Positions 9,734 to 61,825 of a DNA stretch of 64,000 bases are shown here, one piece after another. Position numbers and translations under genes: made by a program. The notes under the pieces were generated by a model. It saw nothing but the letters and a program-made list of their open reading frames with translations. It did no database searches and was not told where the DNA came from. Source of the DNA: Candidatus Ichthyocystis hellenicum (GTDB lineage: Bacteria; Pseudomonadota; Gammaproteobacteria; Burkholderiales; 2013Ark19i); contig NZ_LN906597.1 in assembly GCF_001460935.1 (NCBI RefSeq), positions 482,768-546,767 on the forward strand. Direction: 5' to 3'. The first letter of the stretch is position 1. The number at the start of each line of letters is the position of its first letter.

Positions 9734-9822
9734 TTTGCTTGTTTTTGGTTAATTTGTAGTTTGATTTGCATAGGTTATCAGGGGTTTGTAGTTGCAAGAG
9801 GTTGTTTAACACGGGGGGGTAT

Positions 9823-11006
9823 ATGGCTAAGGCTAAGTTTGAGCGTACGAAGCCGCATGTTAATGTAGGGACGATAGGGCACGTTGATCATGGGAAGACA
9901 ACGTTGACGGCGGCGTTGACGACGATATTGAGCAAGGCGTACGGAGGAGAGGTAAAAGGGTACGACCAGATCGATAATGCTCCTGAAGAAAGAGCTAGAG
10001 GGATAACGATAAATACGTCGCACGTTGAGTATTCTACGTCAGCGAGGCATTATGCGCATGTAGATTGTCCTGGGCACGCTGACTACGTGAAGAACATGAT
10101 AACCGGAGCGGCCCAGATGGATGGAGCGATACTGGTGGTGTCTGCAGCGGATGGTCCGATGCCGCAGACGAGGGAGCATATATTATTGGCAAGGCAAGTT
10201 GGAGTACCGAGCATAGTAGTATTTTTGAACAAATGCGACATGGTTGATGATCCGGAGTTACTAGAGTTAGTTGAGATGGAAGTCAGGGAGTTATTATCTA
10301 AGTATGATTTTCCTGGGGAAGAGATACCGTTAGTGAAAGGTTCTGCGGTAAAAGCGTTAGAAGGGGATCAAAGCGAGATAGGAGAGAAGGCGGTAATGGC
10401 GTTAGCGGAGGCGCTGGATAGTTATATACCGACACCGACGAGGGCGGTGGATCAGCCGTTTTTGATGCCGATAGAAGATGTATTTTCTATTTCTGGGCGA
10501 GGCACAGTGGTAACCGGTCGAGTAGAGCGGGGCATATTGAAGGTAAATGAAGAGATAGAGATAGTGGGGCTGAGAGAGACGCAGAAGACTATATGTACGG
10601 GAGTGGAGATGTTTCGCAAGTTACTGGACGAGGGTCGTGCCGGTGACAATGTGGGGATATTGTTGAGGGGAGCGAAGAGGGAAGATGTAGAGAGAGGGCA
10701 GGTTTTGGCGAAGCCGGGTTCAATAACTCCTCACACGGTATTTGAGGCGGAGGTGTATGTATTGTCGAAGGAAGAAGGGGGTCGGCATACACCATTTTTT
10801 AATGGATATAGACCGCAGTTTTACTTTAGGACAACAGATGTAACCGGATCGATCAAGTTTGAAGGAGAGATGGTAATTCCCGGGGACAATGTGACAATGC
10901 ATGTTGAGTTGATAGCACCGATTGCGATGGAAGAGGGCTTACATTTTGCTGTACGAGAAGGTGGCAAAACTGTTGGTGCTGGTGTTGTTACAAAAGTTAT
11001 TAAGTA
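9823..11006 (+). repeat. Long direct repeat (tuf copy 1), partner at 25951-27134
   Basis: As far as I can read, the sequence is identical to the second tuf gene from the start codon to the first two bases of the stop codon. The flanks differ immediately: TAAATT follows here and TAGAGG follows the partner. The copies lie 16,128 bases apart in the same orientation, so recombination between them could delete or duplicate everything from tRNA-Trp to fusA. Confidence 0.9.
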
Positions 11007-11007
11007 A
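9823..11007 (+). CDS. tuf: Elongation factor Tu, copy 1
   Basis: EF-Tu delivers aminoacyl-tRNA to the ribosomal A site with GTP. The 394-residue protein has GHVDHGKTT (G1), DCPGHADY (G3), NKCDMVDD (G4) and complete beta-barrel domains 2 and 3, ending [10 protein letters not shown]. It starts at ATG 9823 after a run of seven G residues; the frame is open upstream to 9766, but the family start is [12 protein letters not shown]. Codons are dominated by ATA, ACG, GCG and AGG/AGA, unlike the neighbouring ribosomal genes, which favour T-ending codons. The last 20 or so codons return to the local style. It appears identical to the copy at 25951-27135. Confidence 0.98.
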
Positions 11008-25950: not shown

Positions 25951-27134
25951 ATGGCTAAGGCTAAGTTTGAGCGTACGAAGCCGCATGTTAATGTAGGGAC
26001 GATAGGGCACGTTGATCATGGGAAGACAACGTTGACGGCGGCGTTGACGACGATATTGAGCAAGGCGTACGGAGGAGAGGTAAAAGGGTACGACCAGATC
26101 GATAATGCTCCTGAAGAAAGAGCTAGAGGGATAACGATAAATACGTCGCACGTTGAGTATTCTACGTCAGCGAGGCATTATGCGCATGTAGATTGTCCTG
26201 GGCACGCTGACTACGTGAAGAACATGATAACCGGAGCGGCCCAGATGGATGGAGCGATACTGGTGGTGTCTGCAGCGGATGGTCCGATGCCGCAGACGAG
26301 GGAGCATATATTATTGGCAAGGCAAGTTGGAGTACCGAGCATAGTAGTATTTTTGAACAAATGCGACATGGTTGATGATCCGGAGTTACTAGAGTTAGTT
26401 GAGATGGAAGTCAGGGAGTTATTATCTAAGTATGATTTTCCTGGGGAAGAGATACCGTTAGTGAAAGGTTCTGCGGTAAAAGCGTTAGAAGGGGATCAAA
26501 GCGAGATAGGAGAGAAGGCGGTAATGGCGTTAGCGGAGGCGCTGGATAGTTATATACCGACACCGACGAGGGCGGTGGATCAGCCGTTTTTGATGCCGAT
26601 AGAAGATGTATTTTCTATTTCTGGGCGAGGCACAGTGGTAACCGGTCGAGTAGAGCGGGGCATATTGAAGGTAAATGAAGAGATAGAGATAGTGGGGCTG
26701 AGAGAGACGCAGAAGACTATATGTACGGGAGTGGAGATGTTTCGCAAGTTACTGGACGAGGGTCGTGCCGGTGACAATGTGGGGATATTGTTGAGGGGAG
26801 CGAAGAGGGAAGATGTAGAGAGAGGGCAGGTTTTGGCGAAGCCGGGTTCAATAACTCCTCACACGGTATTTGAGGCGGAGGTGTATGTATTGTCGAAGGA
26901 AGAAGGGGGTCGGCATACACCATTTTTTAATGGATATAGACCGCAGTTTTACTTTAGGACAACAGATGTAACCGGATCGATCAAGTTTGAAGGAGAGATG
27001 GTAATTCCCGGGGACAATGTGACAATGCATGTTGAGTTGATAGCACCGATTGCGATGGAAGAGGGCTTACATTTTGCTGTACGAGAAGGTGGCAAAACTG
27101 TTGGTGCTGGTGTTGTTACAAAAGTTATTAAGTA
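25951..27134 (+). repeat. Long direct repeat (tuf copy 2), partner at 9823-11006
   Basis: This is the second member of the tuf repeat pair. Identity seems to begin at the start codon and to end inside the stop codon, with unrelated flanks on both sides. Confidence 0.9.
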
Positions 27135-27135
27135 G
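25951..27135 (+). CDS. tuf: Elongation factor Tu, copy 2
   Basis: This is a second full-length EF-Tu gene of 394 residues, in the classic str-operon position after fusA. The protein appears identical to the copy at 9823-11007, with the same GTPase motifs. AGGAG lies 9 bases ahead of ATG 25951. It has the same atypical codon pattern (Ile mostly ATA, Thr mostly ACG, Ala mostly GCG), with a switch to local codon style in the last 20 or so codons. The stop codon is TAG here and TAA in copy 1. Keeping both copies identical implies ongoing gene conversion. Confidence 0.98.
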
Positions 27136-60443: not shown

Positions 60444-61790
60444 TTATCTGTTGAATTTTTTTATTCCCCCCATAAGCCTCTCTAGTCCATTTTCTCCTCC
60501 TTTTTTGATTTGTTTGAATACCTTTTGCGTTTTCTCAAACTGGGACAAGAGTTTGTTTACTTCTTGGACTGTGGTTCCTGCACCGGATGCAATTCTCCTT
60601 TTTCTGGATGATTTTAATATTTCCGGTGTTTTTCGTTCTTGTGCTGTCATGGAATCAATGATTCCCAAGGATATTTTGACAGTTTTGGCCGTTTGCGGGA
60701 TTTGTTGCGCCGCTATAGAGGATATTTCTTTGGGGAGTTTATCAATAAACCCAGGAACAGAACTTATGGTTCGTATTTGCTCTAGCTGAGCACGAAAATC
60801 TGTCATGTCAAACCTTTTCTTAGATTTTTTGGGTGTGTTTTTTTTCTCCAGGCGACTTTTTTCTGCTTTGCGCGCGTATTCAACAAGAGAGACTACATCA
60901 CCCATCCCAAGAATGCGGGAAGCCATTCTCTCTGGATAAAATTCTTCCAATCCGTCTAATTTTTCCGAAGTCCCGCAAAACTTTATAGGAACACCAACCG
61001 TATCCCATACCGATAAAGCCGCTCCCCCTCTGGTATCTCCATCCAATTTTGTGACGATAGCTCCTGTAATTTTTACTGCTTCCTTAAAGGCGAGAGATGT
61101 GCTAACTGCATCCTGACCTAACATGCTGTCAATCACAATAAACGTTTCGACCGGTGAAAGAATTTCTTCTAGCTCGGTTAGTTCATTGAGCATAGGTTTA
61201 TCTACGGAAGTTCTTCCTGCTGTATCGAAAATTATCAGATCGTATGCTTTTTTATTCGCGTGAGTAAGCGCAGATCTTGCTATATTTTGCGGTGATTTTT
61301 CTGAAGATTCATAGAAATCTACAGAAAGCTGTTCTGCTAAAATTCTTAACTGATCTATTGCTGCCGGTCGATAAACGTCTCCACTCGAAATTAGAACTTT
61401 CTTCTTGCTTGAGTCCTGGATAAATTTTGCTAATTTTCCTGCTGTGGTGGTTTTTCCAGAGCCTTGGAGCCCAGTAAGAAGGACGGTTGCCGGAGGCGGT
61501 GCGTTAAGATTAAGTTCAGATTTTGCACTTCCAAAAAGGTCTGTGAGCTCCTTATGTACTATGCCGATGAAGGCTTGGGCAGGAGTCAAACTGGAAATTA
61601 CGCGCTCACCAATGGACTTCGTCTTGACACTGTCTATAAATTTTTTCAGTGTAACTAAGGAAACGTCGGCGTCCACCAATGCTACCCGAACCTCGCGGAG
61701 AGCATCTTCTATGTTTTTTTCTGATATTTTGGCCTGGCCACTCAGAGTTTTATGGATCTCGTGAAAACGGGAAATAAGTTGGTCAAACAT
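60444..61790 (-). CDS. ffh: Signal recognition particle protein Ffh
   Basis: Ffh binds 4.5S RNA and signal sequences and delivers ribosomes to FtsY at the membrane. The 448-residue protein has the N domain, G domain (GLQGSGKTTTAGKLAKF near residue 107; DTAGRTSVD; TKLDGDTRGGA) and M domain with the RNA-binding SRKRRIASGAGTTVQEV. The M domain contains only three methionines, at about residues 332, 385 and 440, in contrast to the methionine-rich groove usual in Ffh. ATG 61790 matches the family start MFDQL, with GGGGG upstream. Confidence 0.95.
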   Translation of the reverse strand: MFDQLISRFHEIHKTLSGQAKISEKNIEDALREVRVALVDADVSLVTLKKFIDSVKTKSIGERVISSLTPAQAFIGIVHKELTDLFGSAKSELNLNAPPPATVLLTGLQGSGKTTTAGKLAKFIQDSSKKKVLISSGDVYRPAAIDQLRILAEQLSVDFYESSEKSPQNIARSALTHANKKAYDLIIFDTAGRTSVDKPMLNELTELEEILSPVETFIVIDSMLGQDAVSTSLAFKEAVKITGAIVTKLDGDTRGGAALSVWDTVGVPIKFCGTSEKLDGLEEFYPERMASRILGMGDVVSLVEYARKAEKSRLEKKNTPKKSKKRFDMTDFRAQLEQIRTISSVPGFIDKLPKEISSIAAQQIPQTAKTVKISLGIIDSMTAQERKTPEILKSSRKRRIASGAGTTVQEVNKLLSQFEKTQKVFKQIKKGGENGLERLMGGIKKFNR

Positions 61791-61825
61791 GATTTGCAAC
61801 CCCCTAGATGATTTGGGAACCTATC

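What the first reader, a model, noticed from the sequence alone, without database searches (positions are those of the whole stretch)
60444..60850. Ffh M domain nearly without methionine
The signal-sequence-binding M domain of Ffh is normally rich in flexible methionines. Here the segment after the G domain has just three, and positions usually Met appear as Ile, Val, Phe, Leu or polar residues (for example RTISSVPGF, KTQKVFKQI). The RNA-binding motif is intact. It may reflect altered signal-peptide preference or low-Met composition.
Basis: partly seen in the sequence, partly recalled or inferred. Interest (0 to 1): 0.5.

Follow-up and report, generated by a model that had tools for sequence, protein, structure and literature searches.

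The report
SRP protein nearly without groove methionines
In this bacterial genus the protein that catches signal sequences of new membrane proteins has lost nearly all of the flexible methionines thought to line its binding groove, mostly to other greasy residues, which makes it a natural test of whether those methionines are needed.

Summary
Ffh lies at window 60444-61790 (-). The only held congener also has 4; 57 other order-level relatives have 8-21 (median 16), and among 148 Ffh compared (not a random set) these two are lowest. At 8 reliably aligned positions of the finger loop and C-terminal helix that are often Met, both species have none (146 others: 1-8); 7 of 8 are hydrophobic instead. 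Two invariant Met remain; a tail Met (440) may be a third survivor, depending on the alignment. The loss is not general Met poverty: 100 of 123 consensus Met are kept in eight other proteins plus Ffh's NG part, against 3 of 14 here; the proteome sample has an ordinary 2.2%; the GroEL tail keeps its Met. Ffh looks functional: family models, GTPase and RNA motifs, FtsY and 4.5S RNA are present, and the M domain is normally conserved between the two species. Thermus aquaticus Ffh (solved) is a partial precedent (5 Met). Best reading: a working SRP with a hydrophobic, nearly Met-free groove fixed on the genus stem. Changed client preference is neither supported nor excluded.

The parts
60444..61790 (-). 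ffh, signal recognition particle protein, 448 aa from ATG (an upstream in-frame TTG at 61799 is less likely the start)
   Evidence: TIGR00959 502.9 bits over cut-off 473.2; PF02881, PF00448, PF02978 over cut-off; relatives align from this Met
60447..60911 (-). GM linker and M domain, residues 294-448, 4 Met in 155 aa (296, 329, 381, 440)
   Evidence: 329 is Leu in 56 of 57 relatives
60519..60815 (-). PF02978 signal-peptide-binding domain, residues 326-424
   Evidence: 90.5 bits, cut-off 27
60744..60776 (-). finger-loop stretch, residues 339-349, IRTISSVPGFI; usual Met at 339 and 342 (and often 345, 349) replaced by I, I, V, I
   Evidence: column counts in 57 relatives; codon ATA at 339 and 342 in both species
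60576..60608 (-). SRP-RNA-binding motif SRKRRIASGAG, residues 395-405, intact
60453..60530 (-). C-terminal helices and tail, residues 421-446; Met-rich in relatives; here T421, V424, F425, I428, then a tail whose alignment is uncertain and in which Met440 may match a usual Met
   Evidence: helices 408-430 and 432-441 in the model
61212..61226 (-). DTAGR GTPase motif, residues 189-193, intact (as is GLQGSGKTT at 61446-61472)

Best explanation
This is an ordinary, functional Ffh of the bacterial SRP. On the stem of its genus, nearly all methionines of the finger loop and C-terminal helix were replaced, mostly by branched aliphatic or aromatic residues. It most likely works as any SRP does: the M domain binds 4.5S RNA through the intact SRKRRIASGAG helix, a hydrophobic groove takes the signal anchor, and the NG domain pairs with FtsY. 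The difference is a groove wall that is greasy but stiffer instead of methionine-lined. Shown: the sequence pattern, its presence in both species held, its specificity against other proteins, normal constraint since the species split, presence of partners. Inferred: that these positions line the groove in this protein, that it binds signals as well as a Met-rich one, and that the cause is relaxed demand for side-chain flexibility in a host-restricted lineage (helped by AT mutation pressure) rather than selection for a new preference.
For: Family models and fold are met. FtsY and Ffh are found in own genome and congener, and 4.5S RNA over cut-off in both. The congener has the same zero at the 8 positions. 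Between the two species the M domain is 73.9% identical at 76.8% NG identity; 222 pairs of other relatives at the same NG identity have a median of 70.6%, so the domain is not decaying. 7 of 8 replaced positions are hydrophobic in each species. T. aquaticus Ffh, with a solved structure, has only 5 Met in the aligned 133 residues against 15 of 140 in E. coli. Low-Met M domains also occur elsewhere in the sample: L191 (G075) 5, L113 6, L185 and L081 7.
Against: The loss hits Met columns selectively: identity to relatives is 0.19-0.20 at Met columns against 0.48-0.49 at other M-domain columns, where relatives among themselves have 0.65 at both. Plain drift might be expected to leave more Met; position 425 is Met in 57 of 57 relatives and F or V here, although 12 other Ffh of the wider 148 also lack it. 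Thr421 is polar in both species (but Thr also in 15 of 57 relatives). Ffh NG also keeps few consensus Met (3 of 7, congener 4 of 7). Nothing here shows binding or targeting activity.
Confidence: 0.68

Rival explanations
1. Adaptive retuning: a stiffer, nearly Met-free groove was selected because this lineage's SRP serves a narrower or different set of clients, for example with a raised hydrophobicity threshold.
For: All 8 reliably aligned positions are non-Met in both species while the rest of the domain changed much less; the state is stable since the split.
Against: First hydrophobic segments are of ordinary hydrophobicity (61 of 184 ORFs, median KD15 2.33; G053 2.50, p = 0.016 with the window's genome lower; G032 2.31, p = 0.25). 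No client data.
Confidence: 0.13
2. Mutation pressure alone: AT bias turns ATG into ATA and the like.
For: Genome sample 35.6% GC; codons at 339 and 342 are ATA in both species.
Against: Met is kept in 100 of 123 consensus positions elsewhere; G041, whose Ffh locus is 35% GC, keeps 17 Met in its M domain (L025); most other codons at these positions (GTT, ATT, ACG, GTA, TTC, ATC in the window) are not single ATG-to-ATA steps.
Confidence: 0.08
3. Methionine economy in a host-dependent auxotroph, or avoidance of oxidisable Met.
For: If the organism is Ca. [quoted passage not shown]
Against: Proteome sample 2.16% Met; GroEL tail 9 Met in its last 40 residues, congener 8, four relatives 4-7; FusA 4.3% Met against a median of 4.4% in relatives. 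Met329 is even a gain (Leu in 56 of 57 relatives).
Confidence: 0.05
4. Decay of an SRP on the way to being lost, as in the lineages without SRP seen in the same class.
For: Ffh has diverged more on this lineage than other core proteins (distance ratio 1.58 NG, 1.56 M, against 1.21-1.42 for seven proteins; the relative sets differ, 57 against 14-19). SRP loss does seem to occur in the class.
Against: No stop codon or frameshift; GTPase and RNA motifs intact; M domain constrained between species; 4.5S RNA and FtsY kept.
Confidence: 0.06

Closest known systems
Bacterial Ffh with Met-rich M domain (E. coli; 2xxa, 5nco, 5gaf)
   Same: Same domain order, GTPase motifs, RNA-binding motif; 47% identity to 2xxa_A
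   Different: 3 Met against 15 in the same M-domain span; none at the 8 reliably aligned Met positions
Thermus aquaticus Ffh (2ffh)
   Same: Also Met-poor (5 of 133 in the aligned part), with Leu or Phe at finger-loop positions, in a solved protein
   Different: Thermophile (recalled); keeps two Met in the C-terminal helix (EEMKALMK) and one in QMQNLK, where the window protein has none
Ffh of a 0.4-Mb genome, G075 (L191)
   Same: 5 Met in 155 aa; 1 Met at the 8 positions
   Different: Keeps Met at position 425; no RF00169 match in that genome

Membership tests
Ffh / SRP54 (bacterial SRP protein) | Scores over the curated equivalog cut-off for Ffh | tested here: met
   TIGR00959 502.9 bits, cut-off 473.2
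Ffh / SRP54 (bacterial SRP protein) | N, G and M domains in order with SRP GTPase motifs | tested here: met
   PF02881, PF00448, PF02978 over cut-off; GLQGSGKTT and DTAGR
Ffh / SRP54 (bacterial SRP protein) | SRP-RNA-binding motif in the M domain and a cognate 4.5S RNA in the genome | tested here: met
   SRKRRIASGAG; two RF00169 matches of about 60 bits, cut-off 40
Ffh / SRP54 (bacterial SRP protein) | Receptor FtsY in the genome | tested here: met
   338-aa open frame with PF00448 at G000:C1:256691-257293, FtsY-like on reading; no FtsY-specific model was run on it
Ffh / SRP54 (bacterial SRP protein) | Binds signal sequences and targets nascent chains | not testable with these tools
   needs biochemistry
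Methionine-rich ('bristle') type of M domain | M domain enriched in Met over the proteome, with Met at finger-loop and C-terminal-helix positions | tested here: not met
   2.6% Met against 2.16% in the proteome sample; 0 of 8 positions Met. So it is an Ffh, but not of the Met-rich type

The most novel reading that the evidence does not exclude
A mesophilic host-restricted genus runs its SRP with a groove that holds no bristle methionine at all, with a changed client range (for example a stricter hydrophobicity threshold) selected on its stem; methionine flexibility is then a tunable, not an essential, property of signal recognition.
Probability: 0.15. Interest if true: 0.65.

Novelty: new variant of a known kind. 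Interest (0 to 1): 0.42.

Why it matters
A usual reason given for how SRP binds so many different signals is a pocket lined with methionines (so stated in the review PMC8230904, passage). A conserved Ffh with none at the reliably aligned positions is a natural test of that idea. The contrast with T. aquaticus matters because high temperature cannot be the reason here, if the organism is the fish-gill bacterium I take it for.

Tried and rejected
Rejected: general Met depletion; pseudogene or decay; a shift of bulk signal hydrophobicity (crude: Kyte-Doolittle windows on mechanically called ORFs of 200 aa or more, in 20 stretches of 20 kb per genome).

Mended on checking: I first counted 12 positions as all non-Met. 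Three further M-domain alignments showed that the tail after residue 428 aligns in two ways. In two of the three, Met440 falls on a column that is Met in 51 of 57 relatives, so 'every one lost' was too strong. I now rest on 8 positions before the tail (339, 342, 345, 349, 421, 424, 425, 428). Met in at least half of relatives holds for 6 of them (not 345 and 428). I left out 427, Met in 25 of 57 relatives and Gln in both species here. The two 4.5S genes differ at 1 of 97 positions, not at none.

Limits. The positions were chosen from relatives, and I did not map contacts in a solved complex. In one search I gave 14 control proteins: 8 were scored, RpsC had too few sequences (6), and NusG, L1, L11, SecY and RpoA gave no usable match in the fetched stretches. 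The dS estimate failed (one search gave -1), so no dN/dS. In one search a strict pattern parsed 54 of 80 named loci; one search used all 80. The named loci came from a scan with the Met-poor M domain, are the best 80 of at least 570, and are not a random sample. One of the 60 genomes (G051) had no PF02978 match and is not in the counts. The nine extra Ffh are those readable among the ten weakest PF02978 matches other than the window's (G138 was in pieces). The name Ca. Ichthyocystis rests only on genus size, 35.6% GC in the sample, 2.15 Mb and the published figures (about 35% GC for Ca. I. hellenicum, up to 2.6 Mb; PMC4943182, passages). No named record was matched. The model is weak at residues 341-370 (pLDDT 63-67) and 431-448 (46-59) and was not used for groove geometry.

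Paper searches for Met-poor M domains listed no paper whose title or abstract start described one. I saw passages only, of six papers (PMC4943182; PMC8321541; PMC2568955; PMC4737761; PMC2905702; PMC8230904).

Full report
What is there. The finding covers the C-terminal third of ffh. The gene runs on the minus strand from ATG 61790 to the stop at 60444, 448 codons. Around it lie rplQ-like, riboflavin-synthesis-like and nusB-like frames on one side and a methyltransferase-like and a TtcA-like frame on the other (names from reading, not from a family search). Ffh passes the curated cut-off of the Ffh equivalog model and has all three Pfam domains.

How unusual it is. Of the 60 same-order genomes searched, 59 gave an Ffh: the window, one congener and 57 of 58 others. 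The window and the congener have 4 Met each; the 57 others have 8 to 21, median 16. The PF02978 score is 93 bits for both, against 106 to 127 for the rest. With 80 named loci from a collection scan and nine of the ten weakest matches of a 370-genome class survey added, the two remain the lowest of 148. Next come a 0.4-Mb genome (5), two Bacteroidota (6 and 7; phylum partly recalled) and a 1.5-Mb genome (7). So there is a tail of Met-poor domains, and this genus is its end in this sample, which is not random. A weak PF02978 score does not by itself mean few Met: G080 and G171 score below the window and have 17 and 18.

Which methionines are gone. The four Met are 296 (LGMGD, Met in 57 of 57 relatives), 329 (Leu in 56 of 57, thus a gain), 381 (SMT, 57 of 57) and 440 in the tail. 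At eight reliably aligned positions of the finger loop (339, 342, 345, 349) and C-terminal helix (421, 424, 425, 428) the window reads I I V I T V F I and the congener I I V L T A V L; the 146 other Ffh have one to eight Met there. Beyond residue 428 the alignment is ambiguous: in two of three M-domain alignments Met440 sits on a column that is Met in 51 of 57 relatives, in the third it does not. According to PMC4737761 (passages) the finger loop clamps on the signal sequence and a C-terminal helix seals the groove. I infer that these are the bristle positions; I did not measure contacts.

Specific to Ffh. At columns that are Met in at least half of relatives the window keeps 3 of 14 in the M domain but 100 of 123 in eight other proteins plus the NG part (Fisher p 1.1e-5). 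Leave-one-out relatives keep a median of 79% in the M domain (minimum 50%). The NG part of Ffh alone keeps 3 of 7, which is low too. Proteome Met is 2.16% in 184 sampled ORFs, against 2.24% and 2.37% in two relatives, so the M domain (2.6%) has lost its enrichment. The GroEL tail keeps 9 Met in 40 residues. Met saving or a general ban on exposed Met is therefore unlikely.

Is it working? Between the two species the M domain is as conserved as expected for the NG identity (73.9%, against a median of 70.6% in 222 matched pairs). FtsY is present in both species (by PF00448 and reading), and 4.5S RNA is present in both, with two near-identical copies in the own genome. The model has the Ffh fold (mean pLDDT 82.4; best matches Ffh structures), but residues 341-370 and 431-448 are modelled with low confidence.

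Cause. Two positions carry ATA in both species, one step from ATG, so AT pressure may have helped, but it did not remove Met elsewhere. Ffh as a whole has diverged faster on this stem than seven other proteins (ratio about 1.57 against 1.21-1.42; the relative sets differ). The first hydrophobic segments of sampled ORFs are not more hydrophobic than in relatives; against G053 they are slightly less so. I therefore favour a loosened need for Met over a new preference, and keep the latter as the bold reading. Selectivity for Met columns (identity 0.19, against 0.49 at other columns) is the main result against simple drift.

Precedent. T. aquaticus Ffh shows 5 Met in the 133 aligned residues printed (counted), so a Met-poor M domain as such is known from a solved structure. 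What goes further here is the complete loss at the eight positions in what is probably a mesophile. The organism is most likely Ca. Ichthyocystis (gill bacteria of fish): 35.6% GC in the sample, 2.15 Mb, one congener; published values are about 35% GC and up to 2.6 Mb (PMC4943182, passages). This naming is inference.

Side result. In the class survey 28 of 370 genomes had no PF02978 match. The 20 that the output listed were tested further, the other 8 were not. Of the 20, 17 gave no match to the window Ffh, FtsY included; 16 of those 17 had no PF00448 match and one only a fragment below the cut-off; 0 of 17 had 4.5S RNA whereas 12 of 13 other genomes in the same call did; 17 of 17 had SecY. 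In 5 of the 17 the RNA search scored only 94 of more candidates, so a miss there is possible; but three of the genomes with a hit were capped in the same way. Two of the 17 are tiny (0.3-0.4 Mb), where such loss would surprise less. This looks like loss of the whole SRP in several families. Two paper searches listed no paper whose title reports it; that is a weak negative.

Noticed in passing
genomes G062 G064 G088 G094 G101 G159 G183 G202 G208 G216 G220 G250 G265 G283 G303 G309 G311 (unnamed, same class): Apparent loss of the whole SRP (no Ffh or FtsY match, no 4.5S RNA) although SecY is present and the genomes are rated 94-99% complete, 0.3-3.2 Mb, in 13 family codes. G265 has a 20-bit PF00448 fragment below the cut-off; 8 more genomes without PF02978 were not listed and not tested.
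   Followed up: partly
genomes G099 and G100 (unnamed): 4.5S RNA and an FtsY-like GTPase found, but no M-domain match; G099 is one contig. Missing Ffh or a gap in the assembly.
   Followed up: no
L032 and L033; L182:9019-10894 against L167:4410-6339 (own genome): Two 4.5S RNA genes differing at 1 of 97 positions inside a duplicated segment of about 1.8 kb (97.9% identical); the congener gave one 4.5S match.
   Followed up: partly
L069:1122-2456 (Chloroflexi MAG HGW-Chloroflexi-9): Ffh-like protein with a Met-containing M domain but altered GTPase motifs (GSKGGGKTT, DFERVAAS and DSVGI in place of GLQGSGKTT, DVYRPAA and DTAGR), perhaps a GTPase-poor paralogue.
   Followed up: no
window 9766-11007 and 25951-27135: Two EF-Tu-like frames, one after a tRNA cluster and one after FusA; ordinary, from recall.
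   Followed up: no
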